Source of the DNA: Jiella marina
Lineage (GTDB): Bacteria > Pseudomonadota > Alphaproteobacteria > Rhizobiales > Rhizobiaceae
Direction of reading: 5' to 3'
Length of the DNA: 64,000 nucleotides
Assembly: GCF_024359545.1 (NCBI RefSeq)
Contig: NZ_JAKQZG010000001.1
Span: 62,001-126,000 of the forward strand
Shown here piece by piece: positions 29,800 through 44,534 of the stretch. The notes under the pieces were generated by a model. The model was not told the DNA's origin, searched no databases, and saw nothing but the letters and a program-made list of their open reading frames with translations. How positions within the stretch are numbered: the first letter of the stretch is position 1; the number at the start of each line of letters is the position of its first letter. Position numbers and translations under genes: made by a program.

Positions 29800-29885
29800 G
29801 GCCTGACCACGAGGTTCGATGCGTCGGACGATTGTTCGGTGTCGGATGAGTGGCAGGCACCAGATCAGTTCACGGACCCAATCCC

Positions 29886-31025
29886 ATGCGCGCGACGATC
29901 CTCGTTCATCGAATTCCGATCGACACTCCGGTCCAGACGTCGTTCGGCATCATGCATGACCGGCCCTCGCTGATGCTGCGCCTCGAAGACGATGATGGTG
30001 CGATCGGCTTCGGCGAGATCTGGTGCAATTGGCCGAGCGTCGGCGCCGAACATCGCGCACGTTTGATGGAAGCACTGATCCTGCCGCTCGTCGCAGAGAG
30101 CGGGCTGGCGGATAATCCCGCCGAGCTCTGGGTCTGGCTCTCCGCCCGGCTTCGGATCCTCGCGATCCAGTCCGGCGAACCGGGACCGATTGCCCAGTGC
30201 CTCGCAGGCCTCGAATGCGCCCTCCAGGATCTGGCAGCGCGGCGGGCGGGTCTTCCCCTGGCGCGATTCTTGTCGAGCGAAGCCAGCGCATCGGTTGCCG
30301 TCTATGCCAGCGGCATCAATCCGACCGGTGCGCCCGAGACGGCGGAGCGCGCGATCGCCGCAGGCTACCGTGCCTGCAAGGTGAAGGTGGGTTTCGGACG
30401 GGATCGCGACCGCGAAAACCTTCTCGGCGCGCGGGCCCTGATTGGCCCTGACGTGCAGATGATGGCCGATGCCAACCAGGCCTGGACGTCGGAAGAGGCC
30501 GTGAGCTTTGCGGAAACCGCCGACGAGGTCGGCCTTTCATGGCTGGAGGAGCCCTTGGCCCATGACGTCGCCGACGAGGACTGGCGGCAGGTGGCCGATG
30601 CGATGCAGACTCCGCTTGCGGCGGGCGAGAATTTTGCCAGCGCACGGGACTTCGATGAACTACCGGCCGCGCGAGGTCTCGGTGTCGTTCAGCCCGATCT
30701 GGGGCGTTGGGGCGGAGTCGCGCAGTTGGTCGCGGTCGGCCGTTCGGCCCGAGCGCACTGCATGCTGTTCTGTCCGCACTGGCTCGGCGGCGGCGTCGGG
30801 CTCCTGACGTCCTGCCACGTCAAGGCGGCGCTCGATGACGAGGACGGCTTTGTCGAAGTCGACTTCAACGACAATCCGATGCGGAGCGAACTCGCTGCGG
30901 AAATCTTCGCTACCCTAAGAGATGGCCGCGTGAGCCTTCCCGACAAACCCGGCATCGGTATCGACGACGCGGCGATCGACGCCTTTCGTGCGCACCTCAC
31001 CGTGGCGCGGGAAATCACTTTCTGA
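29886..31025 (+). CDS. Mandelate racemase/muconate lactonizing enzyme family protein (enolase superfamily acid-sugar dehydratase)
   Basis: 379 residues. Catalytic and metal residues of the mandelate-racemase subgroup can be traced: K165-x-K167 in C-K-V-K-V, D195 in A-D-A-N-Q-A-W, E221/E222 in W-L-E-E-P-L, E248 in A-G-E-N, D271 in Q-P-D-L-G-R and H298 in C-P-H-W-L-G-G, forming the Lys and His-Asp bases at opposite sides. Such enzymes dehydrate or epimerise acid sugars. It follows tctA by 86 bases on the same strand. Having it together with the IlvD/Edd dehydratase suggests either two substrates or two dehydration steps. Confidence 0.88.
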   Translation: MRATILVHRIPIDTPVQTSFGIMHDRPSLMLRLEDDDGAIGFGEIWCNWPSVGAEHRARLMEALILPLVAESGLADNPAELWVWLSARLRILAIQSGEPGPIAQCLAGLECALQDLAARRAGLPLARFLSSEASASVAVYASGINPTGAPETAERAIAAGYRACKVKVGFGRDRDRENLLGARALIGPDVQMMADANQAWTSEEAVSFAETADEVGLSWLEEPLAHDVADEDWRQVADAMQTPLAAGENFASARDFDELPAARGLGVVQPDLGRWGGVAQLVAVGRSARAHCMLFCPHWLGGGVGLLTSCHVKAALDDEDGFVEVDFNDNPMRSELAAEIFATLRDGRVSLPDKPGIGIDDAAIDAFRAHLTVAREITF

Positions 31026-31164: not shown

Positions 31165-32205
31165 CTACCGGCGCGGTGCCCCAAGGGCTGCCCGTGGATC
31201 GAAGGGTGCACCTTCGACCGCAGCCACGATCGCGTCGGCCAGGGGAAGCCGCTCGGGCAGGGCGCCGCGTCTCTTGGCCTCGCGCATGCCGGCGGAAAGG
31301 CTCCGCGCGACGTCGATGCCTTCGACCGTCTCGCCCTTCATGGGACCCGCGACGATCTCCGCGATGGTCATGCCTTCGCCGAGATGGAGGCCGAGCCGCG
31401 AATTGCGGCCGCCCCCGACGGTGACATGCAGGTCGCCAAGACCGGCCAGGCCGTGCGCGATCTCCGGCTTACCGCCGATCCATGTGGAAAGCAGCGTCAT
31501 CTCGTCGATGGCCCGCTGAAAGGCTCGGGCGACCGGGTTCTTCACCGGCTCTCCATCGCGCTTGTATGCGCCCATCATCGCGCTGACGCCGATCGTGAGG
31601 AAGTTCTTCAAGGCCGCGCAGGCCTCGACGCCGATCACATCCTTGGACGTCGAAATCTCGTAATAGTCCGTCGCCATCAGGCCCGCAGCTTGCCGCACGG
31701 CGGCTTCGTCGCGCCCGGCATAGACCACGGCGGTCATGCGGCGCTCGGCAAGCTCCCGCGCAATGCAGGGCCCGCCGATCCCCACAAAGGATGGCATTGA
31801 TCCACCACGCTCCGCGACGAGTGCGGGGAGCGCGTCTGCATAGGTTTCCGGCGCTTCGTCGCCGCGAGCCACGAGACCCTTGGTGACGATCGCAACCGGT
31901 GCCTTCGGCGCAAGGCGCACGAGTTGATCGGCCGCCCAGCCGATGCCGGGCGACGAAACGCCGATGATGACGAGGTCGGCGGCGGCAACCTCGTCCGGCG
32001 TGATGGCATCCGCGTCGCGGACATCGACGTCCGGGTCGAGCGGTGCCTTGAGGCGGGGATGAGCCGAACGATCCTTCGACAGGGCTTCGAGGACGTCGGC
32101 ATCGAGAGGCGTCGTGCCGAGGATGACGTCATGGCCATTGTCTCTCGCGGGAACGGCGAGCGCCGAGCCCATCACGCCGGCGCCGAGGATGACGACCCGG
32201 CTCAT
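31165..32205 (-). CDS. NAD(P)-dependent glycerol-3-phosphate dehydrogenase-like protein (GpsA family)
   Basis: 346 residues. N-terminal Rossmann motif V-I-L-G-A-G-V-M-G-S-A, substrate-binding G-P-C-I-A-R-E-L-A and catalytic Lys in C-A-A-L-K-N-F-L-T-I-G follow the GpsA pattern, so it should act on a glycerol-3-phosphate-like alcohol phosphate. It is the last gene of the polyol ABC operon and overlaps the ATPase gene by four bases, which makes a catabolic polyol-phosphate role likelier than lipid biosynthesis; housekeeping gpsA is usually elsewhere. Exact substrate unknown. Confidence 0.85.
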   Translation of the reverse strand: MSRVVILGAGVMGSALAVPARDNGHDVILGTTPLDADVLEALSKDRSAHPRLKAPLDPDVDVRDADAITPDEVAAADLVIIGVSSPGIGWAADQLVRLAPKAPVAIVTKGLVARGDEAPETYADALPALVAERGGSMPSFVGIGGPCIARELAERRMTAVVYAGRDEAAVRQAAGLMATDYYEISTSKDVIGVEACAALKNFLTIGVSAMMGAYKRDGEPVKNPVARAFQRAIDEMTLLSTWIGGKPEIAHGLAGLGDLHVTVGGGRNSRLGLHLGEGMTIAEIVAGPMKGETVEGIDVARSLSAGMREAKRRGALPERLPLADAIVAAVEGAPFDPRAALGAPRR

Positions 32206-33281
32206 GCGGCCTTGCTCGCATTCGGTTCGATGCGCTGCTCGCTCTCTGGGTCGAACAGGTGGGTCTTTGCCGGGTCGATCTTCAAGCCGACCTGCGCGTC
32301 GCGCTCGAAGCGCCGACGTTCGGGAATGACGATCCGCACCTCCGAATCCTCGACGTTGACGTGAACGACGGTCTCGGCCCCCGTGGTCTCGGACAGAAGC
32401 ACGGTGGCGGGAACGCTTCCCGGCTCGTTCGCTTCGCCCACGCCGATATCGACCGGGCGCACGCCATAGACCACCTTGCGTCCCGGCTGGACCGAGCCGG
32501 AAACGGGCAGCACGGTCTTGCCGAAGCGCACGCCCTCCGCGGCGGTCTCGCCCGCCATGAGATTGATCGAGGGCGAGCCGATGAAGTCGGCGACGAAGAG
32601 ATTGGCCGGACGGTCATAGACCTCGTCCGGCGATCCCATCTGCATGATCTCGCCCGAGCGCATGACGACGATGATGTCGGCCATGGTCATGGCCTCGATC
32701 TGATCATGGGTGACGTAGATCGTCGTCGCGTTCACCCGGTCATGAAGCTGGCGGATCTCGTAGCGCATCTGTCCGCGCAGCTTGGCGTCGAGATTGGAGA
32801 GTGGTTCGTCGAACAGGAAGACTTTCGGCTCGCGCACGATCGAGCGGCCCATGGCGACGCGCTGGCGTTGTCCGCCGGACAGGGCGGCGGGCTTGCGGTC
32901 GAGATAGGGCTCGAGCGCCAGGATGCCGGCAGCCCATTTCACGCGCTTCTTGATCGTCTCCTTGTCGATGCCGCGCACCTGCAGTCCGAAGGCGATATTG
33001 TCGTACACGCTCATCTGCGGATAGAGCGCGTAGGACTGGAACACCATGGCGATATCGCGGTCGCGCGGATGGACGCCGTTCATCCGCTCTCCGCCGATGG
33101 CGACCTCGCCCTTGGTGATCTTCTCCAGTCCCGCCGTCATTCTCAGGAGAGTCGTCTTGCCGCAGCCTGACGGACCGAGAAGCACGACGAATTTGCCATC
33201 GGGAATGGTGAAGGAGATGTCTTCCATCACCTTCATCGTTCCGTAGCTTTTCGCGACGTTGCGATAGTCGACCTGGGCCAT
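32202..33281 (-). CDS. Polyol/sugar ABC transporter ATP-binding protein (UgpC/MalK type)
   Basis: 359 residues. Walker A G-P-S-G-C-G-K-T-T, signature L-S-G-G-Q-R-Q-R-V-A-M-G-R-S, Walker B V-F-L-F-D-E-P-L-S-N-L-D and a C-terminal TOBE region. Second UgpC-type ATPase in the window; it belongs with the permeases at 38729-40622. It lies 13 bases after the AraM-like dehydrogenase. Confidence 0.95.
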   Translation of the reverse strand: MAQVDYRNVAKSYGTMKVMEDISFTIPDGKFVVLLGPSGCGKTTLLRMTAGLEKITKGEVAIGGERMNGVHPRDRDIAMVFQSYALYPQMSVYDNIAFGLQVRGIDKETIKKRVKWAAGILALEPYLDRKPAALSGGQRQRVAMGRSIVREPKVFLFDEPLSNLDAKLRGQMRYEIRQLHDRVNATTIYVTHDQIEAMTMADIIVVMRSGEIMQMGSPDEVYDRPANLFVADFIGSPSINLMAGETAAEGVRFGKTVLPVSGSVQPGRKVVYGVRPVDIGVGEANEPGSVPATVLLSETTGAETVVHVNVEDSEVRIVIPERRRFERDAQVGLKIDPAKTHLFDPESEQRIEPNASKAA

Positions 33282-33294
33282 GAATGCTCGGCTT

Positions 33295-34611
33295 TCAGTT
33301 CACAGTGGCAAGAAAGGGCTCGAGCCGACCGGAATCGTCGGCAAGGTCGAGCATGGAAAAGCGGTCGCGGATGAAGCGGGCGTCTCCGACATACTGCCGA
33401 TAGAGTTCGGCTGGAAGGCCAAGATCGGCGGCGGTCAGCTGGCAGCCGGCAGCGGCCATCGCATTGTGAAGCTCGTCGAAGGGACGCGTCACCGCCGCAA
33501 GGCGCGACTTGATCTGCGGCCACTCGCGCCGGAGTTTATCGTTCATCCGCGCAGCGCCTTCCTCGTCGAAGGCCTTCTTTTCGGTCTCCTCGGCCATGGT
33601 CCGGGCCATGGCCTCGCCATAACGCTTCGCAAGCTGTTCGACCGGAATGACCGTGGGCTTCAGTTCGGGCGGTGCGTCGAGGGCGATCGTCTCGTTCTGC
33701 AGCCGCGACATGGTGAGCGAGGCGACGCCCACCTGTTCGCCATGGGAGGTGCCCGGATGCTGGGAGCCGGCGAACATGTCGATGCAGTGGGAGATCATGT
33801 GCTCGGCCATCGAGCCCACATGAGTCGTGCCGGTGAAGGAAGTGCTCGAGCCCATGATCGCGGAGACGCGCACGAGCCGGGCGAGGGCCTCGAAATCGCC
33901 CTCCAGGAGCTTCGGCGCGAGCGCGATCATATCGTCCTCGTCATAGGCGAGGAGGGTGTAGGCGGTCTCGCTGTAGGGCGTATCGTACAGGAGGTGCATC
34001 AGGAGCCAGTCGGATTGCGCTGTCGTGCGGCAGACGACGTCGGCGAAGGCGGCGGAGACGAGGCGCGGCGGGCATTTCGCGATGACGCCGAGATCGAAGA
34101 AGACGCCCTTGGCGAAATGGCAGGTGATCGACTTCTTGAAACCATCGACCGAGAGCGACGCCGTCGGCGTCGTATAGGCGTTCATCGGGCTGGTGGCGAA
34201 GACCGAATATTCGCGGCCATCCTCGAAGGTCGCGTATTTGCATCCGTCGGAGACCGAGCCGGAACCGACGGCGATGAGTACCTCGGCATCCGCCGTCGCT
34301 TCCGAGAGTTTGCGGATGGCGCCGAGTTCGACCTTGGGCTTGTTCCAGACATATTCCGAAACGGTGAGGCCGTCGCGCCGTAACGCGTCGAGAAGACGTC
34401 CGCCCAGCGCCTCGCGGGTGAAGGAGTCATGGACCACGCAGATGTGCTTATCGCCGTGGCACGCCCGCACGAGTTCGGCCTCGCGGCCTTCCAGCGTATC
34501 GGCGATCTCGATCCTGTCGATCTTGATGCCTTTTTGCTGGCCGTCATTGGGGTCGACCCAGCGATGGGCGACGAGGTCCTCGATCACGCCGAGGCGCGAA
34601 TGTGCAGTCAT
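33295..34611 (-). CDS. sn-Glycerol-1-phosphate dehydrogenase-like protein (AraM/EgsA family)
   Basis: 438 residues, iron-containing alcohol dehydrogenase superfamily. The nucleotide loop G-S-G-S-V-S-D-G-C-K-Y and the metal-ligand region S-M-A-E-H-M-I-S-H...G-T-S-H-G-E-Q-V-G-V match AraM/EgsA, which oxidise or form sn-glycerol 1-phosphate in bacteria and archaea. The start codon overlaps the stop of the FGGY kinase (ATGA), implying it uses the kinase product. The combination with a GpsA-like enzyme in one operon means dehydrogenases of opposite stereochemical preference side by side. Confidence 0.87.
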   Translation of the reverse strand: MTAHSRLGVIEDLVAHRWVDPNDGQQKGIKIDRIEIADTLEGREAELVRACHGDKHICVVHDSFTREALGGRLLDALRRDGLTVSEYVWNKPKVELGAIRKLSEATADAEVLIAVGSGSVSDGCKYATFEDGREYSVFATSPMNAYTTPTASLSVDGFKKSITCHFAKGVFFDLGVIAKCPPRLVSAAFADVVCRTTAQSDWLLMHLLYDTPYSETAYTLLAYDEDDMIALAPKLLEGDFEALARLVRVSAIMGSSTSFTGTTHVGSMAEHMISHCIDMFAGSQHPGTSHGEQVGVASLTMSRLQNETIALDAPPELKPTVIPVEQLAKRYGEAMARTMAEETEKKAFDEEGAARMNDKLRREWPQIKSRLAAVTRPFDELHNAMAAAGCQLTAADLGLPAELYRQYVGDARFIRDRFSMLDLADDSGRLEPFLATVN

Positions 34612-36140
34612 GACTGGTCTTTCGTTGCGCGTTCCGCAAAGGCGACGAGGCGGTGGTTGATGTCGGCCGTCGCCGCATAGGCGGATTGGAAAATGTCGCC
34701 GAGTTCGTCATAGGCGTCGCGGCGGGAGGCATCAGGCTCGATCGGCGTGGTGGCGCCTGCCATCGCGCCTGCCGCCTCTTCGATCGACGAGAACCAGCCG
34801 GCGCCATGGGCCGCGATCATGCCGGCGCCGAGCGCCGAGGCCTCGACCGTGCCGGAAATGCAGACGGGCCGGCCCGAAGCGTCGGCGAGCATCTGACGCC
34901 AAAGCGGCGAGTTGGCGCCGCCGCCGATCGCGACATAGCGCTCGACCTTGCGGCCGGTGACTTCCTCGGTCCGCCGGGTCGCGGCAGCGAGCCAGACGGT
35001 GATGCCTTCGAGGATCGCCCGGTAGATATGGACCGGACCATGGCTTCCGGAGAGGCCCATGATCGTGCCGCGGGTCTCCGAATCCCAGTGAGGGTCCATG
35101 ACGCCGCCCCAGAAGGGCTGGACGAGGACGCCCTCCGAGCCGATCGGCAGCCGCAGCGCTTCGGCCTCCAGCCGGTCGAAGATGGCGGGGTCGGAACGCC
35201 CGCCGAGGAACTTGTCGACGAACCAGTTGATCAGGAAGGCGCCGCCGCGCAGGCAGTTTTCGAAGATGAAGCCGTTGCCCTGGGCCGCGATCTGGGTCCG
35301 GAAGGCGTCGGAAACCGCGAAATCCGGCTGCCAGACGCCGGAGACGACCGCCGTGCCGAGATTGACATAGGCCTGGGCGGGATCGGTGCAGTTCGTGCCG
35401 AGCCCGGCGCATTGGCCGTCACCGCCGCCGGCAAAGACCGGACAGCTTTTCGGCAGGCCCGTGGCCTCTGCGGCCTCGGCGGTGATTTCGCCGAGCTGGG
35501 TGCCCGGCGCATGGGTCTCGGCAAGCTTTTCGACCGGCAGTTCGATCGCCTCCAGAATGGTCCGCGACCATTCCTTCTTGCGGATGTCGAACAGCGCGAA
35601 GGGATCGGCGCTCGACCAGCTGGTGCGCGGACGCCCTCCACAGAGGTCGGAGACCAGTACGGTCTGGACGTCGCAGAAAAGCGCTGTCTTTTCATAAAGA
35701 TCCGGCTCGTTCTTCTTCATCCAGGCCAGGCGATAGAGACAGGGAATGATGTCCACCGGGCGCCCGGTGATCTCGTGGATCGTCTTTCGCCCAAGCGCTG
35801 CGGCCAGTTCCTCGACTTCAGCCGGTGCGCGCTCATCAAGCCACACCGTTGCGGGTCGGACAGAGCGGCCGTTCGCATCGAGATGGGCCATGGTCTCGCG
35901 CTGGTTCGAGATGGCGAGGCCGAGGATCCGTGAGGGATCGATCTTTCCCGTCAGGTCCTGCAAAGCCTTGCGGGCAGCCTTGCGCCAGTCGTCCGGCTCC
36001 TGCTCGAACCAGCCGAGGCGGGGATTGGAGAGCTCGATCGGCGCGCGACCCTCGGCAACGGACTCGCCGGAGGCCGTCCAGGCGATCGCCTTGGCCGACT
36101 GGGTCGAAGAGTCGAGGCCGATGACGACAGGCTCGGCCAT
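34608..36140 (-). CDS. FGGY-family carbohydrate kinase (xylulokinase-like)
   Basis: 510 residues. The N-terminal ATPase lobe begins V-I-G-L-D-S-S-T-Q-S-A-K, followed by I-S-N-Q-R-E-T-M and the FGGY signature region; the C-terminal lobe carries V-A-I-G-G-G-A-N-S-P-L-W-R-Q-M-L-A-D. Members phosphorylate xylulose, ribulose, glycerol, erythritol and related polyols. In this operon it follows an SDR by 4 bases and overlaps the AraM-like dehydrogenase, so a free polyol or ketose is probably phosphorylated and the product oxidised. Confidence 0.92.
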   Translation of the reverse strand: MAEPVVIGLDSSTQSAKAIAWTASGESVAEGRAPIELSNPRLGWFEQEPDDWRKAARKALQDLTGKIDPSRILGLAISNQRETMAHLDANGRSVRPATVWLDERAPAEVEELAAALGRKTIHEITGRPVDIIPCLYRLAWMKKNEPDLYEKTALFCDVQTVLVSDLCGGRPRTSWSSADPFALFDIRKKEWSRTILEAIELPVEKLAETHAPGTQLGEITAEAAEATGLPKSCPVFAGGGDGQCAGLGTNCTDPAQAYVNLGTAVVSGVWQPDFAVSDAFRTQIAAQGNGFIFENCLRGGAFLINWFVDKFLGGRSDPAIFDRLEAEALRLPIGSEGVLVQPFWGGVMDPHWDSETRGTIMGLSGSHGPVHIYRAILEGITVWLAAATRRTEEVTGRKVERYVAIGGGANSPLWRQMLADASGRPVCISGTVEASALGAGMIAAHGAGWFSSIEEAAGAMAGATTPIEPDASRRDAYDELGDIFQSAYAATADINHRLVAFAERATKDQS

Positions 36141-36144
36141 CGTC

Positions 36145-36870
36145 TCAGTACTCCTGCCGGGTGGGCGTCACGACCATTTCCTGGATCAGGACGTTCTGCG
36201 GCATGTTGTAGGCAAACAGGATCATCTCGGCGACGTGGTCGGCCGAGATGCCGCCTTCGATCCGCTGCTTGTTCGCCTTGTAATTGGCGAGGGTCTGCTG
36301 GTCCGTGACATGGTCGAGGACCTCGGTCTCGATGATGCCGGGCGACAGAACGACGACACGCACGTCATGCGGCGCGAGCTGCTCGCGCAGGGACTCCGAC
36401 ACGGCGTGGACGAAGAACTTGGTGCCGCAATAGATCGTGTGATCCGGATAGACCTTCCGCCCGGCGATGGAACTCATCATGAAGATCGTGCCGCGACGGC
36501 GGTCCTTCATGCCGTTCATCACCGGATAGACCGTGTTCATCAGGCCCTTGGCGTTGATGTCGATCGTCTCGTCCCATTCGGCGGGATCCTGGTTGAAGAT
36601 GTTGCCGAGGCGCGCGATACCGGCATTGGCGAACATCACGTCGGTCGGTCCGAACCGTTCCTCGCCCTCGGCGACGGCGCGCACGACCGCGTCGCGGTCG
36701 CGCACGTCGACCTCGGCGAGATGGGCGTTCGGCAGGTCGAGCGCTTCCATGCGGTCCCGGCGCCGGGCCATGAGAAGAAGCGGGTGTCCGGCCTTGGCGA
36801 AGGCGCGGGCAGTCGCTGCGCCAATCCCCGAGGAGGCGCCGGTGATCGCGACGAGCGGTTTGTCGGTCAT
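36145..36870 (-). CDS. Short-chain dehydrogenase/reductase (YdfG/serine-dehydrogenase-like)
   Basis: 241 residues. T-G-A-S-S-G-I-G-A-A-T-A-R at the N terminus, F-A-N-A-G-I-A-R and the catalytic M-M-S-S-I-A-G...Y-C-G-T-K motifs identify a classical SDR of the NADP 3-hydroxy-acid dehydrogenase type. It lies 4 bases upstream of the FGGY kinase gene, so it may oxidise the imported polyol before phosphorylation. Confidence 0.9.
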   Translation of the reverse strand: MTDKPLVAITGASSGIGAATARAFAKAGHPLLLMARRRDRMEALDLPNAHLAEVDVRDRDAVVRAVAEGEERFGPTDVMFANAGIARLGNIFNQDPAEWDETIDINAKGLMNTVYPVMNGMKDRRRGTIFMMSSIAGRKVYPDHTIYCGTKFFVHAVSESLREQLAPHDVRVVVLSPGIIETEVLDHVTDQQTLANYKANKQRIEGGISADHVAEMILFAYNMPQNVLIQEMVVTPTRQEY

Positions 36871-36946
36871 GAGGGTCGGTCCGGTGATTTCGGGAAGTTG
36901 AAAGATCGGCGAGGCAGGCGACCTGGCATCGCCATCTCGGGATACG

Positions 36947-36976
36947 TCGTCCGCCCGAAGAACGCCGGGCGGACGA
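36947..36976 (-). terminator. Intercistronic hairpin downstream of the polyol-binding-protein gene
   Basis: A perfect 11-bp stem (tcgtccgcccg / cgggcggacga) with an 8-base loop in the 206-base gap between the binding-protein stop and the SDR start. Same placement as the hairpins after the other binding-protein genes. Confidence 0.6.
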
Positions 36977-37076
36977 GGCCTGCGGCCCGCTCACGAGGCC
37001 CGGGAGGAGGTGGCCGGATCTCGTTCGCCCGGCCGCCTCGTAAGCGAGCTCTCAGAAGTGTGTCCCAAAGGGACGA

Positions 37077-38591
37077 TCAGCTTGCGAGCAGATTGTCGAC
37101 GCTCTGCTTGATCGTATCCATGACCGTCTTCGGGTCGTCATATTCACCGGCCCAGAAGCGGCCGAGTTCGACCGGAATGATGTCGTTCGAGATCTCCGTC
37201 CACTCGGGCAGATCCGGCTCGGAGCCCATATGGTTGGCGATCGTCTCGCGCACGGCGTCGAGATGGCGCGTGGTGCCCGGGATGCCGACCTTGGCGTTCG
37301 CCTTGACGCGCGGGTCGTCATAGACGGACGAGCGCGTCGGACCGGTGCCGCCGCCAAGAACCGTGATCCAGACCTGCGTCTCGGGTGCGGTCGCCCACTG
37401 GGCGAACAGCCAGGCAGCATCCGGGCTCTTGGAGTATCTCGACACTGCGAGCGATGAACCGCCCTGGTGGCCGACGCCGGGGATCTCGCCATAGCCAGTC
37501 TCATCGACCGCGCGCAGCGAGTTTGCCTTCGGCGGCACGGTGGCCTCCATCAGACCGGCGACGTTCGAGCCGTTCGGCGAATCCCAGGAGGGGAAGAACT
37601 CGCCCCAGGAGATCAGCTGTCCGGCGATGCCCTGCGCGACCGACTGGCCCTGACCGTCCCAGGTCCAGGAGGTCACGGCGTCCGGCATGTTCTTCTTCAG
37701 CTCGATCCAGTAGTTCATCGCCTCGATGCCGGCCTCGTCATTGCCGGTGAACTTGCCGTCCGGCCCGAAGATGGAGCCGCCATGGGCCCAGAGCCAGCAG
37801 GTCCAGTCGCATTCCAGCGAATAGTGGCCGGACTTCATCTGGCCGGTGGTGCCGTAGATCTCCGGCGCCTTTGCCTTCATGATCGTCTGGGCATTGGAGA
37901 GGTATTCCGCCATGGTCGTGGCGGGCTTCAGGCCGAGCTCTTCATAGAGGTCGCGGCGGTACATCTGGATGAAGATCGGGATGTCATAGGGAACGCCGAC
38001 CATGACGCCGTCATACATCGAGATACCGTCGACGAGGGCCGGCAGGAAGTCGTCGATATTGTAGTTCGGCATCGCCAGGTCGGCGTTCGATTCGTACTTC
38101 TCGCGGGGGTCCACGACGTCGCCGGAGAAGGCGGCCATCCAGGACTGGTCGAGATAGTAAAGGTCGTAGGTGCCGAGGCCGGAGGCGACGTCGAGGGTCA
38201 GCTTCTGCAGCACCTGTTCGAGCGGCAGGGTCTCGATCTCGACATTGATGCCGGTCGTCTCGGTGAAATAGCCCTTGAGCGCCGAGTTGATCGCGTTGGA
38301 GGGCGGGGTCGACTCGGTGGCGAGCCGGATGGTCTGACCGGCGAAAGGCTTGGCGGCTTCCTTCAGCCAGTTGGTCATGTCCTCCGGCCACTCGATGTTC
38401 TGTTCCTGAGCCCGGGCCGGGCTGATCAGGCCGAGACCGGACCGCGCCGAGAGATGCGAATAGGCGCCGAGCGCACCAGCGCCGAGACCGAGCTTGGCGG
38501 CCGAGCGCAGGAAGCTGCGCCGATCCATCTGTCCGCGCGCGAAGCGATCGGTCAGGGATGCGAGCCAGAGTTTGCGATCCACTGGATTCAT
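37077..38591 (-). CDS. Polyol/sugar ABC transporter substrate-binding protein
   Basis: 504 residues, longer than typical family 1 binding proteins. The N terminus has a twin-arginine signal M-D-R-R-S-F-L-R-S-A-A-K-L-G-L-G followed by a hydrophobic stretch and A-R-A-Q near residue 63, so Tat export is expected. The mature part contains I-R-L-A-T-E-S-T-P-P-S-N-A, E-T-L-P-L-E-Q-V-L-Q-K-L-T-L-D and W-L-F-A-Q-W-A-T-A-P-E-T-Q, as in polyol/sugar-binding proteins of rhizobia. The ATG has GGGAGGAA upstream. Third gene of the operon after the two permeases. Confidence 0.9.
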   Translation of the reverse strand: MNPVDRKLWLASLTDRFARGQMDRRSFLRSAAKLGLGAGALGAYSHLSARSGLGLISPARAQEQNIEWPEDMTNWLKEAAKPFAGQTIRLATESTPPSNAINSALKGYFTETTGINVEIETLPLEQVLQKLTLDVASGLGTYDLYYLDQSWMAAFSGDVVDPREKYESNADLAMPNYNIDDFLPALVDGISMYDGVMVGVPYDIPIFIQMYRRDLYEELGLKPATTMAEYLSNAQTIMKAKAPEIYGTTGQMKSGHYSLECDWTCWLWAHGGSIFGPDGKFTGNDEAGIEAMNYWIELKKNMPDAVTSWTWDGQGQSVAQGIAGQLISWGEFFPSWDSPNGSNVAGLMEATVPPKANSLRAVDETGYGEIPGVGHQGGSSLAVSRYSKSPDAAWLFAQWATAPETQVWITVLGGGTGPTRSSVYDDPRVKANAKVGIPGTTRHLDAVRETIANHMGSEPDLPEWTEISNDIIPVELGRFWAGEYDDPKTVMDTIKQSVDNLLAS

Positions 38592-38728
38592 ATCTTTCCT
38601 CCCAATTTGGCGAACAGGAGTTCGCCCAGAACGCACGGACCGGTCCCGTGCAGACCTTTGGCGGGATCGTCTTGCGATCGCGCCGGCCCGGTGCTGCCTC
38701 CTAAGAAGCCCGGGCCCGATTCCTCCCG

Positions 38729-39604
38729 TCACTGCTTCAGTGAACCGAGCGTCAGCCCGCGCACGAGATTGCGCTGGACGAGGAGAATGAAGATGAAGGC
38801 GGGGATCATTGCCGCCGTGCCGAGCGCGGCCATGTTGCCCCAGGCCGTACCGGTCGACGTCACGAAGGTCGAGGCTGCAACGGGTACTGTCTTGAACGAG
38901 GTCTGGGTCAGCGTCAGCACGAACAGGAACTCGGTCCAGGAAAAGACGAAGCACAGAACCGCCGTCGCCGCGACACCGCCGAGGGCCATGGGCATGACGA
39001 TCTTGCGAAAGATCAGGACTCGGCTCGCGCCGTCGATGAGCGCCGCCTCGTCGATCTCGGTCGGAATGTCATCGAAGAAGGATTTGAGCAGCAGCACCGC
39101 CAGCGGCAGGTTCATCAGCGCGTGTGCGAGGATGATGCCCGTATAGGTGTCGAGCAGGCCGAAATTCTTGTAGATGAAGAACATCGGAATGGCGATCGCC
39201 ACCGGTGGCATCATCCGCGTCGACAGCACGAAAAAGACGAAGTGATGCTGGCCGCGAATGCGCATACGCGACAGCGCGTAGGAGGCGAGCGTCGCCACGA
39301 TGACCGTCAAGAGCGTTGACAGGACAGCGATGACGATCGAGGCCCAGAGATTGGGCAACATGTAGAAATTGCCGCCGCCGGGCAGCACTTCGAGGCCCTT
39401 GTCGAAGCCGAAGGAAATGCCGAACACCTCTTCGAAGGAGGAGAGGTTCCAGTTGAAGTCGAAGAGCTTCGGGGGCAGGGCGAAGATGTCCCGCTCCGGT
39501 TTGAAGGCGACGGTGATCCAGTAATAGATCGGGAAGGCGAAGAGCGCGACGAGCAGCCAGGCCACGACCGCCCGCACCACCTCGCGCGAGGTCGAACCCA
39601 TCAT
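38729..39604 (-). CDS. Polyol/sugar ABC transporter permease (CUT1, MalG type)
   Basis: 291 residues, six helices; docking loop E-A-A-L-I-D-G-A-S-R-V-L-I-F-R-K-I-V-M-P and C-terminal G-L-T-L-G-S-L-K-Q as in MalG/SmoG-like permeases. Two adjacent ATG codons could start it. It has a long first periplasmic loop (about residues 40-85). It follows the MalF-type permease by 43 bases. Confidence 0.93.
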   Translation of the reverse strand: MMGSTSREVVRAVVAWLLVALFAFPIYYWITVAFKPERDIFALPPKLFDFNWNLSSFEEVFGISFGFDKGLEVLPGGGNFYMLPNLWASIVIAVLSTLLTVIVATLASYALSRMRIRGQHHFVFFVLSTRMMPPVAIAIPMFFIYKNFGLLDTYTGIILAHALMNLPLAVLLLKSFFDDIPTEIDEAALIDGASRVLIFRKIVMPMALGGVAATAVLCFVFSWTEFLFVLTLTQTSFKTVPVAASTFVTSTGTAWGNMAALGTAAMIPAFIFILLVQRNLVRGLTLGSLKQ

Positions 39605-39647
39605 GATCGTCTCCGGTCGGTTCTGTGAAGGATCATCATGCGCGCCC

Positions 39648-40622
39648 TCACCATTTCAGTTTCGCAGCCCAGACGAACAGGTTCGCCGAGACCACGATGA
39701 TGAACAGGGTGAACAGGCTGAGCGCCGCGCCATAGCCCCATTTGATGAAGGAGAAGGTCTGCTGCCAGGCGTAGAGTGACAGCGTGTACGTGGCCGTGCC
39801 CGGCCCGCCGCTCGTCATCACATAGACGTAGTCGAACATGCGGAAGAGATCGATGCCGCGAATGAGAACTGCGATCGCGATGACCTTCCACATCATCGGC
39901 AAGGTCAGGCGGGTGAAGGTCTGGAAGACGTTCGCCCCGTCGATCATGGCGCTCTCGAAGGGCTCTTTCGGCAGGGCCCGAAGCCCGGCGAGGAAGATCA
40001 AGACCATGAACGGCGTCCATTGCCAGACGTCGGCCAGGATCACGCCCCAGAGCGCAAGCGTCGGATCGGACAGGATCGCGCCGCTGCCGTCCATGATTCC
40101 GAGACTCTTCAGCACGAAGGGCAGAAGGCCGAACTGCGGATCTTCCATCAGAAGAAACATCATGCCGGTGATCGCGGGCGGCACGACGAGCGTGAGCGTC
40201 AGAACACCGCGCAGCAGGCCGAAGCCCGGCGCGTCCGAATCGAGAAGCAAAGCCAGGATCATGCCGAGCACGATCTGAATGGCGAGACAGATGCCCGTGT
40301 AGAGCAGCGTCACCTGCAGCGCTTCCCACATGCGGCTGTCGGCGAACATCGTCGCCCAGTTCTCGAAGCCGACATATTCGAGGCTTCGGCGCCGAGGCAG
40401 GAACTCCTGGAAGCTCAGCCAGATATTGTAGAACAATGGATAGAGCGCGAAGACGCCGAGCATGGTGATTAGCGGCGCAAGCCACGGCCATGGCGTGTCG
40501 GACAGGAATTTGCGCCTGCGCGTCGACCTTGCCGCGCCGCCCATGGACGGTGGAACGTCGGCCGCCATGCGGCCCGTCAGATCGCCCGCATGAGCGATCT
40601 GCAGCCCCGACCGAATCGTCAT
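39648..40622 (-). CDS. Polyol/sugar ABC transporter permease (CUT1, MalF type)
   Basis: 324 residues from the chosen ATG (M-T-I-R-S-G). A cytoplasmic N-terminal tail of about 50 residues precedes helix 1 (W-P-W-L-A-P-L-I-T-M-L-G-V). Docking loop E-S-A-M-I-D-G-A-N-V-F-Q-T-F-T-R-L-T-L-P. An ATG at 40568 (M-A-A-D-V-P) is an alternative; the longer frame to 40715 would enter the promoter. First gene of the eight-gene minus-strand operon and divergent from the SorC regulator. Confidence 0.9.
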   Translation of the reverse strand: MTIRSGLQIAHAGDLTGRMAADVPPSMGGAARSTRRRKFLSDTPWPWLAPLITMLGVFALYPLFYNIWLSFQEFLPRRRSLEYVGFENWATMFADSRMWEALQVTLLYTGICLAIQIVLGMILALLLDSDAPGFGLLRGVLTLTLVVPPAITGMMFLLMEDPQFGLLPFVLKSLGIMDGSGAILSDPTLALWGVILADVWQWTPFMVLIFLAGLRALPKEPFESAMIDGANVFQTFTRLTLPMMWKVIAIAVLIRGIDLFRMFDYVYVMTSGGPGTATYTLSLYAWQQTFSFIKWGYGAALSLFTLFIIVVSANLFVWAAKLKW

Positions 40623-40734
40623 TGCCTCAGTTCGGGCCAAGCCCGTTCCTCCCAGAACCCAGATGGTCCAATTCCATGCACCGACACCGGTGCCTCCCGA
40701 GCGGGAAGGTTGCACAGACGCTTCCCTCTGGCAA

Positions 40735-40766
40735 GATCAAATGATAACGTTCAAAATCATTCGATC
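40735..40766. promoter_or_regulatory. Inverted repeat between the polyol operon and sorC (candidate SorC-family operator)
   Basis: gatcaaatgat and atcattcgatc form arms matching at 10 of 11 positions, separated by 10 bases (centre 40750/40751). The element sits in an A/T-rich patch between the divergent genes, about 110 bases upstream of the permease start and 75 bases upstream of the preferred regulator start. SorC/EryD-type regulators bind long interrupted dyads of this kind; binding here is inferred. Confidence 0.55.
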
Positions 40767-40840
40767 ATCGAGCGGTGTCGGAGCGACTTGAGGTCGTCAT
40801 TTTGCGGGGGGAGGCGAGCGCGGTGCGGCAGCAGGCTGAT

Positions 40841-41806
40841 ATGTCGGCGAACGACGGCGCGGCCTGGCCCGAGCAACTCGCGGTGCGTGTCGCCTGGTGC
40901 TACTACATGCTGGGTCTCACCCAGGCGCAGGTGGCCGAGCGGCTGGAGATCCCGCGCATGCGCGTCAATCGCCTGCTTGCCCAGGCCCGCGAGCGGGGCC
41001 TTGTCAGTATTTCGATCCATTCCCGGCTGACGGAAAACATCGAGCTCGAGGAGCAGCTGTGCGAGCGTTTCGGCCTCGTGAGGGCCCATGTGGCTCTTGC
41101 CGAGCCACCGATCGCCGATCGCGAGGATCCGGCCCTGGCCGAATTGCTGGGACGGGTCGCCGCGCCGATCGTCGAAAAGCTGATCGTTCCGGGCATGGTC
41201 ATCGGAGTAGGGTGGGGAAACACGCTGCGAGCGCTTGCAAACGCCATGGTGGCGCGGCCCACCGGAAGCGAGGTCTCGGTCATTTCCATGGTCGGATCGC
41301 TGAACCGCCGATCCTCGATCGACGCCTACGAGGCTTCGACGCCATTTGCCCAGAAGCTGGGGGCCGAGTGTTTCTATCTGGCGGTTCCCCTGATCTGCGA
41401 CAGCGCCGAGAGCCGGCAGGCGATCGTCAGCCAGCCCGCGATTGTCGAAATGATGGAGCGGGCTCGCCATGCCGATCTCGCCATGCTGTCGGTCGGCGGC
41501 CCGGCCACCGGAACCGTCGCCCAGACCGGGCTCGTCGAGGCAGATGAACTGGCCGAGCTGCAGGCCGCCGGGGCGGTGGGAAATTTCCTCGGTCATTACA
41601 TCGACGCCGACGCACGCGTGGTCGATCACCCGGTCAACGACCGGGTCGTCGGGCTGCGCCCGGAGGAGCTTGCCGGCGTCGGGCACCGGGTGATGGTCTC
41701 CGGCGGTCCGCTGAAATTGGCGGGCCTGAGGGCCGTGCTCCAGGCCGGGCTCGCCAGCGAACTCGTCACCGATCAGGACAGCGCCCGCCGCCTGCTTTCG
41801 CCCTGA
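40841..41806 (+). CDS. SorC-family (EryD-like) sugar-binding transcriptional regulator
   Basis: 321 residues from this ATG; in-frame GTG codons at 40823 and 40775 are possible earlier starts. An N-terminal helix-turn-helix (L-A-V-R-V-A-W-C-Y-Y-M-L-G-L-T-Q-A-Q-V-A-E-R-L, with I-P-R-M-R-V-N-R-L-L as recognition helix) is followed by the SorC sugar-phosphate-binding domain with G-V-G-W-G-N-T-L and L-S-V-G-G-P. Members such as EryD and SmoC control polyol operons in Rhizobiales and respond to polyol or sugar phosphates. It is divergent from the ABC/kinase/dehydrogenase operon and leads the plus-strand unit with the class II aldolase. Confidence 0.9.
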   Translation: MSANDGAAWPEQLAVRVAWCYYMLGLTQAQVAERLEIPRMRVNRLLAQARERGLVSISIHSRLTENIELEEQLCERFGLVRAHVALAEPPIADREDPALAELLGRVAAPIVEKLIVPGMVIGVGWGNTLRALANAMVARPTGSEVSVISMVGSLNRRSSIDAYEASTPFAQKLGAECFYLAVPLICDSAESRQAIVSQPAIVEMMERARHADLAMLSVGGPATGTVAQTGLVEADELAELQAAGAVGNFLGHYIDADARVVDHPVNDRVVGLRPEELAGVGHRVMVSGGPLKLAGLRAVLQAGLASELVTDQDSARRLLSP

Positions 41807-41886
41807 ACCGGCAAGCCCGGATGCCCTCGGTCGAGCGGTATCCGATCCACTCTCAATACCACCCACGAAAAAAAGGACAAGAACCA

Positions 41887-42543
41887 ATGGACGACGCCGA
41901 AAGAGCGCTTCGCGGAGACATCGTCAGGGCGTGCCAGACGATGGACCGGCGCGGCATCAATCAGGGCACCTCGGGCAATATTTCGGTGCGCTGGAAGGAC
42001 GGGCTTCTGATCACGCCGTCGGGTCTTGCCTACGACACGATGGCGCCGGAGGACATCATCTTCCTCGACATGGACGGCACCGCGACCGGCCCGCACAATC
42101 CATCCTCCGAATGGCGGTTCCATCGCGACATTCTGCGTGATCGCAGCAATTTCAACGCCGTGGTCCACGCCCATCCGACCTATTGCACGGCGGTCTCGAT
42201 CACCAATCGCGACGTGCCGGCGGTCCATTACATGATCGCGGCGGCAGGCGGCCCGACCGTGCGCTGCGCGCCCTACGCCACCTTCGGAACGGAAGAGCTT
42301 TCGGCGAACGCCCTGGCGGCGCTCGAAGGACGCTCGGCCTGCCTCCTCGCCAATCACGGCCTGATTGCCTGCGGACCGTCGCTTGCCAAGGCGACGTGGC
42401 TCGCCGAGGAGATGGAGACTCTCTGCAAGCAGTACGCGGTCGCGCTTCAGATCGGCAAGCCGGTCGTCCTCTCGGACGAGGAGATCGCCCATGTGAAGGA
42501 GAAGTTCAAAGGCTACGGGCCGAAGCGCAAGGATCAGGGCTGA
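41887..42543 (+). CDS. Class II aldolase/adducin family protein (L-fuculose-1-phosphate aldolase-like)
   Basis: 218 residues. Zinc ligands H94-x-H96 (V-V-H-A-H-P-T) and H157 (A-N-H-G-L-I) and the catalytic E75 (S-S-E-W-R-F-H) align with E73, H92, H94 and H155 of FucA. It should cleave a ketose or polyol-derived phosphate to DHAP plus an aldehyde, or epimerise a pentulose phosphate. It follows sorC by 80 bases with AAGGACAAG upstream of the ATG. Its 3' end overlaps the convergent HAD phosphatase gene by 10 bases. Confidence 0.9.
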   Translation: MDDAERALRGDIVRACQTMDRRGINQGTSGNISVRWKDGLLITPSGLAYDTMAPEDIIFLDMDGTATGPHNPSSEWRFHRDILRDRSNFNAVVHAHPTYCTAVSITNRDVPAVHYMIAAAGGPTVRCAPYATFGTEELSANALAALEGRSACLLANHGLIACGPSLAKATWLAEEMETLCKQYAVALQIGKPVVLSDEEIAHVKEKFKGYGPKRKDQG

Positions 42544-43202
42544 GCCGGCGCCGAAGTTTCGAGGAGGAGGGCGCCGTCATGGGCGATCGCGGGGCGCAAA
42601 TGTTCGTAGTCGCGGACGTTCGGTTCGTGAGTGACATGCGCATCGTTCTGAAAACCCGTGATCGCGATCACCGAGGCGCCCGCCGCCTTGCCGGCCTCGA
42701 TGCCGGCGGGGCTGTCCTCGAAGACTAGGCAGTCCTCGACCGGAACGCCCAGCCGCTCGGCGGCAAGGCGAAAGCCGTCGGGCGCGGGCTTGCCCCGGGT
42801 CACGTCCTCCGCGGCGACAATGACTTCGGGGATCGTCAGGCCTGCCGCTGCCATGCGTCGTTCGGCAAGCGGCCGCAACGCCGACGTCACGACCGCCCAA
42901 CGCTCCGGCGGCAGCGCCGCCAGAAAGGCCGCGATGCCGGCTGCGGATTCGATACCGTCCGTATCGGCCATCTCGGCTTCGAAGATCCACTGGGATTCCG
43001 CCTCGACGTCGATGCCCGGAATCCCCTGTTGCGCGATGGTGTCGGCGGCGCGCTTGCCGTGGATCGTCGCGAGAAAGCTCGGCACATCCAGCCCGTGCCG
43101 TTCCGCCCAGCGCGTCCAGACGCGCTCGGTCGCCGCAATCGAAGTCAGGAGCGTGCCGTCCATGTCGAACAGGAAGGCGGCGAAGCGGTTGCGCTGGAAC
43201 AT
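42534..43202 (-). CDS. HAD-family phosphatase / beta-phosphoglucomutase-like hydrolase
   Basis: 222 residues. HAD motif I F-D-M-D-G-T-L-L (D13 nucleophile, D15 acid/base), motif II V-V-T-S-A, and motif III/IV G-K-P-A-P-D-G-F...F-E-D-S-P-A-G-I-E-A-G are intact, with a helical cap between residues 18 and 80. Close to sugar-phosphate phosphatases such as those acting on sorbitol-6-P or 2-deoxyglucose-6-P. It is on the opposite strand from its neighbours and overlaps the aldolase gene end. Probably removes phosphate from a dead-end sugar phosphate of the polyol pathway (inference). Confidence 0.85.
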   Translation of the reverse strand: MFQRNRFAAFLFDMDGTLLTSIAATERVWTRWAERHGLDVPSFLATIHGKRAADTIAQQGIPGIDVEAESQWIFEAEMADTDGIESAAGIAAFLAALPPERWAVVTSALRPLAERRMAAAGLTIPEVIVAAEDVTRGKPAPDGFRLAAERLGVPVEDCLVFEDSPAGIEAGKAAGASVIAITGFQNDAHVTHEPNVRDYEHLRPAIAHDGALLLETSAPAQP

Positions 43203-43481
43203 CGAGAGGTCTGTCTTGATTTCGGGTGGGGTTTCGGCGGCGGGCGCGTCCGGCTGCGGACGGCGTGGGAATTCGGCCTATTACACCGGAAAGGTGGCGG
43301 ACGGATAGGGTCGCTGCCTGAAGGTCACGCTGATCGGGCCGGGACGCTCAATCTCCCACTCAAAGGGAGACCGAAGCAACTGGGCAGGCGCGCATTCTGA
43401 AGCGATCGCCGCAGGCCTGTGAAGACTGAGTTATATATGGCGCCGCCACAATTGGTGCCGGTACTGGGAGGAGCCAAACCG

Positions 43482-44534
43482 ATGAAATCCCTGGTTCTCG
43501 AACGACAGGACGAACTCTCGCTTCGCGATTTCCCGATCGAGAAGCAAGAAGAGACGCTCGGGCCCCGCGACGTGCGCATCAAGCTGCACACCGTCGGCAT
43601 CTGCGGGTCGGACGTCCATTACTACACCCATGGCCGGATCGGCCCCTTCGTCGTCAAGGAGCCGATGATTCTCGGCCATGAAGCCTCAGGGACGGTGATC
43701 GAGACCGGATCGGACGTCACCACGCTGAAGGTGGGCGACCGGGTGTGCATGGAGCCGGGGATCCCCGATCCGAATTCGAAGGCGACGCGGCTCGGCATGT
43801 ACAATGTCGATCCGGCCGTACGCTTCTGGGCGACGCCGCCGGTGCACGGCATCCTGCGGCCGACCTGCGTTCATCCGGAGGGCTTCACCTTCAAGCTCCC
43901 CGATAATGTCAGCTTCGCCGAGGCGGCGATGGTGGAGCCGCTGGCCGTCGGCGTCCACGCCGCGACCAAGGCCCGGATCAAGCCGGGCGACATCGCGCTG
44001 GTCATGGGGGCAGGACCGATCGGCCTCGTCACCGCGCTTTCGGCGCTGGCAGCCGGCTGCGCCCGCGTCTACGTGACCGATCTGGCCGAAAAGAAGCTGG
44101 AGATCGCGGAGGGCCTTTCGAAAGCGATCATCGGCGTCGATGCCGGCAAGGCCGATGTCGTCGAGCGGATCAAGCGCGACACCGACGGCTGGGGATGCGA
44201 CGTCGTCTTCGAGGCGACCGGATCGCCCAAGGCCGCCGCCAGGGTCTTCGAGCCGCTCGCGCCCGGCGGCTGCGTCGTCATGATCGGCGGCCAGCCGGAC
44301 CCGATCTCCTATGATGCCGGGGCCGCGATGGTGCGTGAGGCGCGGGTCGAGAACATCTTCCGCTATGCCCACGTGTTTCCGCGCTGCGTCGCGATGCTGG
44401 CTTCGGGTGCGATCGACGTCAAACCGCTCATTACCCGGACCTTCGATTTCGACGAAAGCGTCGAGGCCTTCGACATCGCCGCTTCGGCGCCGGCGGGCGA
44501 CGTCAAGATGCAGATCGAACTGCCGCAGTCGTGA
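43482..44534 (+). CDS. Zinc-dependent polyol dehydrogenase (xylitol/L-iditol 2-dehydrogenase type)
   Basis: 350 residues. Catalytic zinc motif [11 protein letters not shown] and G-H-E-A-S-G, then G-A-G-P-I-G-L-V-T nucleotide loop and Asp for NAD+. The H-Y-Y-T-H-G-R-I-G segment is characteristic of sorbitol and xylitol dehydrogenases. Unlike many plant and bacterial relatives the structural-zinc cysteine cluster is absent: the region reads [13 protein letters not shown], as in xylitol dehydrogenases of this group. The ATG has GGGAGGAG upstream. It oxidises a polyol to a ketose, feeding the FGGY kinase. Confidence 0.9.

What the first reader, a model, noticed from the sequence alone, without database searches (positions are those of the whole stretch)
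31165..44534. Polyol module with dehydrogenases of opposite stereochemistry (GpsA-like and AraM-like)
One operon carries a CUT1 importer, an SDR, an FGGY kinase overlapping an AraM/EgsA-like sn-glycerol-1-phosphate dehydrogenase, and a GpsA-like sn-glycerol-3-phosphate dehydrogenase overlapping the ATPase gene. The divergent arm has a SorC/EryD-like regulator, a FucA-like aldolase and a xylitol/sorbitol dehydrogenase. GpsA and AraM normally act on opposite enantiomers, so a pathway that oxidises and re-reduces a polyol phosphate with inversion is possible. It does not match the erythritol, sorbitol or xylitol operons I know.
Basis: inference. Interest (0 to 1): 0.6.

Follow-up and report, generated by a model that had tools for sequence, protein, structure and literature searches.

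The report
Sugar-alcohol operon with mirror-image dehydrogenases
A bacterium carries a gene set that probably imports and burns a sugar alcohol, with two enzymes expected to handle opposite mirror forms of its phosphorylated version; similar sets recur in other bacteria, but none of the reactions has been tested.

Summary
In detail: a 13-kb locus with a CUT1 importer, SDR, FGGY kinase, AraM-like and GpsA-like dehydrogenases, and a divergent SorC regulator with a FucA-like aldolase. The GpsA-like gene is a paralogue; a better gpsA lies elsewhere in the genome, and operon copies form their own clade. Related loci are widespread: of 34 tabulated AraM/FGGY loci, 27 also hold a GpsA- or GlpD-type dehydrogenase; 7 do not. 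Four of the 7 carry LalA-, RbtB- and RbtC-type genes of the Sinorhizobium meliloti adonitol/L-arabitol locus, so AraM probably can act alone as an oxidising entry enzyme. Best explanation: the kinase makes a polyol 1-phosphate; AraM and GpsA oxidise opposite C2 configurations to one ketose 1-phosphate; FucA cleaves it. A pentitol is likeliest, a tetritol possible. Oxidation and re-reduction with inversion is not excluded but not needed. Ten searches of an open-access library found no paper on this pair. New variant of the kinase-first erythritol/adonitol type of pathway; every reaction is inferred.

The parts
31165..32205 (-). GpsA-like, probable polyol-phosphate dehydrogenase (operon-type paralogue)
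   Evidence: PF07479 and PF01210 over cut-off; nearest solved sequence 1txg; K109, K200-N201, D258, R267-N268 invariant in 17 operon copies (role of these residues recalled); clade apart from housekeeping gpsA; second gpsA in the genome
32202..33281 (-). CUT1 ABC transporter ATPase (UgpC/MsmK type)
   Evidence: NF008653 474.8 bits over its cut-off 432; overlaps the GpsA-like gene by 4 bases
33295..34611 (-). AraM/EgsA-like (sn-glycerol-1-phosphate dehydrogenase family) dehydrogenase
   Evidence: PF13685 81.8 bits over cut-off; PRK00843 118 bits, below its cut-off 413; EH..SH and HG..VG motifs invariant in 24 aligned copies and shared with solved family members
34608..36140 (-). FGGY carbohydrate kinase, probable polyol kinase
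   Evidence: FGGY_N and FGGY_C over cut-off; best NCBIfam model XylB 280.6 bits, below its cut-off 380; overlaps AraM by 4 bases
36145..36870 (-). classical SDR oxidoreductase; role unknown, perhaps a small aldehyde or polyol
   Evidence: PF00106; nearest solved sequence 3p19, then clavulanic acid dehydrogenase, with sulfoacetaldehyde reductase among five hits; the same SDR type in 18 of 33 parsed clusters
37077..38591 (-). CUT1 solute-binding protein
   Evidence: PF01547; nearest solved sequence 5iai, 109.7 bits, whose ligand is ribitol (PMC8468352 passages); 63-68% identical to the binding protein of Rhizobium/Sinorhizobium/Agrobacterium operons with AraM
38729..39604 (-). CUT1 permease (MalG type)
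   Evidence: ORF; 508-571 bits to homologues in L034, L035, L036, L059
39648..40622 (-). CUT1 permease (MalF type); start codon uncertain
   Evidence: open frame 39648-40715; found beside PermG
40775..41806 (+). SorC/DeoR-type sugar-binding transcriptional regulator
   Evidence: PF04198 192.6 bits
41821..42543 (+). FucA-like class II aldolase, probably for a ketose 1-phosphate
   Evidence: PF00596; 237.8 bits to FucA 1fua; Glu of PSSE, HAH and NHG motifs kept (zinc-site role recalled)
42534..43202 (-).
   Evidence: PRK11587 sugar phosphatase 159 bits, below its cut-off 282; HAD-IA model over cut-off; beside fucA in L034 and L035
43482..44534 (+). sorbitol/xylitol dehydrogenase-type MDR; membership of the module uncertain
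   Evidence: nearest solved: human sorbitol dehydrogenase; xylitol and L-arabinitol dehydrogenases among six hits; not at the matching place in L034/L035, but homologues of 438-448 bits lie in the AraM loci of G115, G080, G040 and G043

Best explanation
A polyol catabolic module with two stereo-complementary entry dehydrogenases. The CUT1 importer brings in a sugar alcohol, most likely a pentitol such as ribitol and/or D-arabitol. The FGGY kinase phosphorylates a terminal carbon. With the phosphate drawn at the top, GpsA-like oxidises phosphates whose C2 hydroxyl points right (as in sn-glycerol 3-phosphate) and AraM-like those whose C2 hydroxyl points left (as in sn-glycerol 1-phosphate). Both give the same 2-ketose 1-phosphate, for example D-ribulose 1-phosphate from D-ribitol 1-phosphate and D-arabitol 1-phosphate. 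FucA-like cleaves it to dihydroxyacetone phosphate and glycolaldehyde; the SDR may handle the aldehyde; the HAD enzyme may dephosphorylate part of the ketose phosphate. Shown: gene content, families, conserved residues, conservation of the set. Inferred: every reaction, the substrate, the direction of each dehydrogenase.
For: FGGY is in 34 of 34 tabulated AraM loci and GpsA or GlpD in 27 of 34 (loci chosen by me as the same AraM type). AraM occurs without either in 7 of 34; four of these (G115, G080, G040, G324) carry LalA-, RbtB- and RbtC-type genes and a fifth (G471) the LalA type. In S. meliloti these families follow the GlpD-type EryB (gene names matched by order, my inference), as if AraM stood in EryB's place. 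PMC3599248 (sections 3 and 13 read, other passages) states that EryA also uses adonitol and L-arabitol and that lalA-rbtABC serve these and not erythritol. Operon GpsA copies are apart from three housekeeping copies with support 100/100. FucA keeps the aldolase motifs, and FucA and RhaD can make D-erythrulose 1-phosphate from DHAP and formaldehyde (PMC10733421 passages). The binding protein is a distant relative of a ribitol-bound one.
Against: No activity was measured. fucA is not needed for erythritol, adonitol or L-arabitol in S. meliloti (PMC3599248). 11 of 34 loci have no aldolase-fold gene in the parsed cluster (several are cut by contig or fetch ends). GpsA and GlpD occur together in Rhizobium-type, G326 and Rubrobacter loci, which looks redundant if both do one reaction. 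RpiB lies next to GpsA in six relatives, which suits a tetrose route too. The window's genome already has an EryA-RbtA-EryB-LalA-RbtB locus, so ribitol and L-arabitol may be covered there. In 20 more distant AraM loci no operon-type GpsA was seen, and an FGGY-like gene only in 8, so AraM has other settings. Opposite stereospecificity rests on family membership.
Confidence: 0.42

Rival explanations
1. Inversion pathway: GpsA/GlpD oxidises a polyol 1-phosphate, AraM re-reduces the ketose phosphate from the other face, and a HAD phosphatase frees the C2-epimeric polyol, which a polyol dehydrogenase (the SDR or the 43482 gene) and a second kinase carry on.
For: AraM, HADIIB and GlpD are packed in that order in 9 loci (gaps -8 to +4 bases). 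A HAD gene is in 28 of 34 loci. Four Rbs-transporter loci (G010, G045, Shinella, G989) have AraM-HADIIB-GlpD and no aldolase in the stretch read; three of them have two FGGY kinases and G045 one plus a fragment at the fetch end. A quinone-linked GlpD would favour oxidation and NAD(P)H-linked AraM reduction (recalled family knowledge, inference).
Against: AraM occurs without GpsA/GlpD in 7 of 34 tabulated loci and in 19 of 20 more distant ones as far as read. The window has no second FGGY kinase in the locus; an RbtB-type one is on another contig. The HAD enzyme could equally act on the ketose 1-phosphate.
Confidence: 0.22
2. A tetritol pathway: threitol and/or erythritol phosphates are oxidised to erythrulose 1-phosphate, which is cleaved by FucA to DHAP and formaldehyde or isomerised to erythrose 4-phosphate with an RpiB-type enzyme.
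For: RpiB beside GpsA in G628, G026, G326, G247a, G029 and G183; SorC regulator related to the EryD-position gene of S. meliloti (170 bits); FucA and RhaD act on D-erythrulose 1-phosphate (PMC10733421 passages); RpiB and dihydroxyacetone-kinase-type genes in the Rubrobacter loci.
Against: No EryC, TpiB or RpiB in the parsed cluster of the window, L034 or L035; RpiB also serves D-ribulose 5-phosphate (recalled); LalA/RbtB/RbtC-type genes of relatives serve pentitols in S. meliloti.
Confidence: 0.2
3. Overflow of triose phosphate: AraM and GpsA act on DHAP released by FucA, making glycerol 1- and 3-phosphate; the HAD enzyme then releases glycerol.
For: Characterised members of both families act on DHAP (recalled); AraM and HADIIB are same-strand neighbours in 15 of 33 parsed loci.
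Against: The genome has another gpsA; operon GpsA is a distinct clade; the tight coupling is to the FGGY kinase, not to the aldolase, and loci without an aldolase were seen.
Confidence: 0.1

Closest known systems
Sinorhizobium meliloti erythritol/adonitol/L-arabitol locus (mpt, eryA, rbtA, fucA1, eryB, lalA, rbtBC, eryC, eryR, tpiB, rpiB)
   Same: ABC import, SorC-type regulator, FGGY polyol kinase acting before oxidation, a dehydrogenase of the glycerol-3-phosphate kind, a FucA gene; several relatives of the window add LalA/RbtB/RbtC-type genes
   Different: GlpD-type EryB; no AraM and no operon-type GpsA found in that stretch; importer with two ATPases; gene names were put on L077 by order, not read from the 2012 paper
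Brucella erythritol pathway EryA-EryB-EryC-EryH-EryI
   Same: Kinase first, then oxidation next to the phosphate, SorC-type EryD
   Different: Three isomerases and one dehydrogenase (PMC5992420 passages); none of the isomerases in the window cluster
Rhizobium/Sinorhizobium/Agrobacterium plasmid operons AraM-HADIIB-GlpD-CUT1-SDR-ATPase-bifunctional aldolase-GpsA (I found no experimental work on them)
   Same: Binding protein 63-68% identical, AraM 40-42%, GpsA 50-54%
   Different: Add GlpD and HAD-IIB, and have a bifunctional aldolase in place of FucA and HAD-IA
Bacillus AraM / archaeal EgsA (sn-glycerol-1-phosphate dehydrogenase)
   Same: Sequence family and metal-site motifs
   Different: Below the named model's cut-off; sits in a polyol-type operon with an FGGY kinase
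GpsA (NAD(P)-dependent sn-glycerol-3-phosphate dehydrogenase)
   Same: Domains and catalytic residues
   Different: Own clade; the stretch between GDL and RN is two residues shorter than in the three housekeeping copies compared, as in 1txg; below the cut-offs of the GpsA models listed

Membership tests
Canonical GpsA | Family domains and catalytic residues | tested here: met
   PF01210 and PF07479 over cut-off; residues invariant in 17 copies
Canonical GpsA | Scores over an NCBIfam GpsA cut-off and groups with housekeeping copies | tested here: not met
   best 139 bits against 257; 19 operon copies apart from 3 housekeeping copies, support 100/100
Canonical GpsA | Only gpsA of the genome, serving lipids | tested here: not met
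   second copy, 151.6 against 80.6 bits to PF07479; genome 99% complete by its own figure
sn-glycerol-1-phosphate dehydrogenase (AraM/EgsA) | Sequence family with metal-site motifs | tested here: met
sn-glycerol-1-phosphate dehydrogenase (AraM/EgsA) | Scores over the named model's cut-off | tested here: not met
   118 against 413 bits
sn-glycerol-1-phosphate dehydrogenase (AraM/EgsA) | Acts on sn-1 configuration phosphates | not testable with these tools
   needs an enzyme assay
Brucella-type erythritol operon | EryB (GlpD type), EryC, EryH/TpiB, EryI/RpiB with EryA | tested here: not met
   none in the window cluster; two rpiB-family genes elsewhere in the genome
S. meliloti adonitol/L-arabitol locus | LalA-, RbtB-, RbtC-type genes with EryA/EryB | tested here: not met
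   absent from the window cluster; EryA, RbtA, EryB, LalA and RbtB homologues are on contig C34 of the same genome
FucA-type class II aldolase | Active-site Glu and three His | tested here: met
   kept in alignments with 1fua and relatives
FucA-type class II aldolase | Scores over an NCBIfam L-fuculose-phosphate aldolase cut-off | tested here: not met
   261.2 against 264 for PRK08087, 240 against 400 for TIGR01086
Sorbitol or xylitol operon | Free polyol oxidised by SDR/MDR before phosphorylation | tested here: inconclusive
   an MDR gene is adjacent but not at the matching place in L034/L035

The most novel reading that the evidence does not exclude
GpsA/GlpD and AraM together form a two-enzyme C2 epimerase for polyol phosphates: one oxidises, the other re-reduces from the opposite face, and a HAD phosphatase releases the epimeric sugar alcohol. 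It would be the phosphorylated counterpart of the fungal L-arabitol/L-xylulose/xylitol inversion and a new way to channel rare alditols into common ones.
Probability: 0.2. Interest if true: 0.7.

Novelty: new variant of a known kind. Interest (0 to 1): 0.5.

Why it matters
Database records name these proteins sn-glycerol-1-phosphate and glycerol-3-phosphate dehydrogenases; the neighbourhoods suggest that in a range of Alphaproteobacteria, and in two Rubrobacter plasmids, they are dedicated polyol-phosphate dehydrogenases. If so, they supply the missing handedness in bacterial routes that phosphorylate a sugar alcohol before oxidising it, and give candidates for organisms whose adonitol, erythritol and xylitol routes are unknown (Propionibacterium freudenreichii, stated as unresolved in PMC4437456, passages read; I did not search its genome). 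Such enzymes could also be useful for making rare ketoses.

Tried and rejected
Rejected: the GpsA-like gene as the only lipid gpsA. Left open: the LalA-type protein as a 4-epimerase; it keeps the Glu and His motifs of the aldolases (the contrast with AraD is recalled), so aldolase or epimerase is undecided. Not settled: chain length of the substrate; 5iai is only distantly related to the binding protein, and its protein name (Arad_9887) and organism are recalled; a full-text search for Arad_9887 found no paper. The one genome-contig scan, with the single AraM protein, gave two loci. Ten literature searches found no paper on this pair; the library is open-access only, and the primary S. meliloti paper (Geddes and Oresnik 2012) was seen only as a reference. 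No structure prediction was run.

Rows left out of the 34-locus table: 20 AraM loci of more distant type that were fetched and annotated (L052, L054, L055; L107-L122 and L124; several on short contigs). In the stretches read none has an operon-type GpsA, one has a GlpD/EryB-type gene (L116), 8 have an FGGY-like gene and 4 a HAD-IIB gene beside AraM. The split into 34 and 20 was my choice, by score to the references. The AraM places of G024, G176, G494 and G486 were not fetched as neighbourhoods. Several tabulated rows are close kin (G115/G080/G040; G290/G326; G068/G135/G208; five Rhizobium-type plasmids), so the counts are not independent.

Corrections during the work: the window's MalF-type permease reference was made in the wrong frame and put right; no count in this report uses the wrong one. 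G183's AraM was missed by the script and that row entered by hand. GpsA of Rleg_TpK, Smel_Ak57 and Agro_sal lies beyond the fetched stretch and was added.
Full report
What is there. The window's ORFs agree with the finding. Pfam and NCBIfam place the genes as GpsA-like, CUT1 ATPase, AraM/EgsA-like, FGGY kinase, SDR, CUT1 binding protein, SorC regulator, FucA-like aldolase and a zinc-type polyol dehydrogenase. A HAD-IA phosphatase-like gene at 42534-43202 was not in the finding. Neither the AraM-like nor the GpsA-like protein reaches the cut-off of its named models (118 against 413 bits; best 139 against 257 bits), although both keep the conserved residues of the families.

The GpsA-like gene is a paralogue. 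The genome has two PF07479 genes; the other scores 151.6 bits against 80.6 for this one. In a tree of 22 proteins the 19 operon copies stand apart from three housekeeping copies with support 100/100, and the stretch between GDL and RN is two residues shorter. The nearest solved sequence, 1txg (from Archaeoglobus, recalled), has the same short stretch.

Relatives. Counts include the window's own genome. AraM at E up to 1e-40 is in 21 of 297 genomes of the order; with a family alignment at 1e-60 it is in 21 of 385 genomes of the class sample and 7 of 398 of the phylum sample. One genome of the same genus is listed (G995) and has no match. Fulvimarina and Aurantimonas records keep HAD-IA, FucA, SorC, importer, SDR, FGGY, AraM, ATPase and GpsA, with AraM 85% identical. 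Rhizobium, Sinorhizobium and Agrobacterium plasmid records carry FGGY-SorC divergent from AraM-HADIIB-GlpD-importer-SDR-ATPase-bifunctional aldolase, with GpsA next; their binding protein is 63-68% identical to the window's. Two Rubrobacter plasmids (Actinomycetota) combine AraM, GpsA, GlpD, FGGY, RpiB and HAD genes.

Table of 34 loci, chosen for having this AraM type; some rows are close kin or cut by contig or fetch ends; one row was entered by hand and three GpsA entries come. FGGY 34 of 34; SorC 29; GpsA 21; GlpD 13; GpsA or GlpD 27; any HAD gene 28; any aldolase-fold gene 23. The seven without GpsA/GlpD are G290 (a housekeeping-type gpsA lies near; short contig), G103 (contig end), G115, G080, G040, G324 and G471. 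Twenty further, more distant AraM loci were read but not tabulated: no operon-type GpsA seen, one GlpD/EryB-type gene, 8 with an FGGY-like gene. An AraM tree of 36 proteins needs 9 label changes for four partner classes, against a shuffled mean of 18.4: partners are clustered but have changed several times.

Link to known biology. An S. meliloti Ak57 record (labelled a plasmid, 3.7 Mb) holds a locus in the order SorC, transporter, FGGY, 2-hydroxyacid dehydrogenase, FucA type, GlpD type, class II aldolase type of 351 aa, FGGY of 427 aa, a short HAD-IIA match, an isomerase, DeoR, TpiB, RpiB. By order and content this fits the published ery/rbt/lal genes; the name-to-gene match is my inference. 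PMC3599248 (sections 3 and 13 read, passages elsewhere) says that EryA also takes adonitol and L-arabitol, that lalA-rbtABC serve these pentitols and not erythritol, and that fucA is needed for none of the three. LalA, RbtB and RbtC types recur in AraM loci, four of which have no GpsA/GlpD. The window's genome has EryA, RbtA, EryB, LalA and RbtB homologues on another contig.

Mechanism. GlpD/EryB and GpsA act on the configuration of sn-glycerol 3-phosphate, AraM/EgsA on that of sn-glycerol 1-phosphate (family knowledge, recalled). Drawn with the phosphate at the top, the first take C2-right and the second C2-left polyol phosphates. D-ribitol 1-phosphate and D-arabitol 1-phosphate then both give D-ribulose 1-phosphate, a known FucA substrate (recalled); L-arabitol 5-phosphate and xylitol phosphate both give L-xylulose 1-phosphate. 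AraM loci without a partner argue that AraM is an entry enzyme in its own right, hence the convergent reading (0.42). The inversion reading stays possible (0.22), best supported by Rbs-transporter loci with AraM-HADIIB-GlpD and no aldolase in the stretch read. The tetritol rival (0.20) rests on RpiB beside GpsA in six loci. Against the FucA step stand the S. meliloti result and the 11 of 34 loci without an aldolase-fold gene in the parsed cluster.

Literature. Ten searches found no report of this pair (listed in Tried and rejected). PMC8468352 (passages) uses 5IAI as a ribitol structure. PMC10733421 (passages) reports that FucA and RhaD form D-erythrulose 1-phosphate. PMC4437456 (passages) states that the erythritol, adonitol and xylitol routes of Propionibacterium freudenreichii are unresolved. 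PMC5996035, PMC5992420 and PMC10433430 were read in passages only.

Verdict. A real, conserved module without experimental work that I could find; a new variant of the kinase-first polyol pathways; substrate and reactions unproved.

Noticed in passing
window 42534-43202: HAD-IA phosphatase-like gene on the minus strand, tail-to-tail with fucA; kept beside fucA in Fulvimarina and Aurantimonas.
   Followed up: partly
L132 9664-16187 (own genome, contig C34): A second polyol locus with EryA, RbtA, EryB, LalA and RbtB homologues of the S. meliloti adonitol/L-arabitol type.
   Followed up: partly
L033 (Rhizobium etli CFN 42 p42a, NC_007762): This copy of the operon looks decayed: GpsA matches in three pieces and binding-protein, ATPase and GlpD matches are short.
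   Followed up: no
L149, L061, L150 (G326, 1.4-Mb genome): A very small genome has about 20 kb with AraM, GpsA, GlpD, RpiB, LalA, RbtB, RbtC, FucA and a bifunctional aldolase.
   Followed up: partly
L060 (G590, 1.3-Mb genome): Operon-type GpsA beside CUT1-like transporter genes and an FGGY-like kinase, with no AraM in the 20 kb read.
   Followed up: no
L069 and L070: Rubrobacter plasmids: AraM beside HAD-IIA and a dihydroxyacetone-kinase-type gene, with GpsA and GlpD side by side.
   Followed up: no
L077 5187-5639 and L030 11110-12216: In the S. meliloti Ak57 record the RbtC-type and one GlpD-type frame look short or broken.
   Followed up: no
window 27824-31025: Genes that by eye look like TctB/TctA transporter subunits and a mandelate racemase/enolase-type enzyme just outside the module; not searched.
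   Followed up: no
L043 2135-3463: Oxidoreductase DRL catalytic domain protein (PF21135) beside a FucA-type gene in an AraM/GpsA locus.
   Followed up: no
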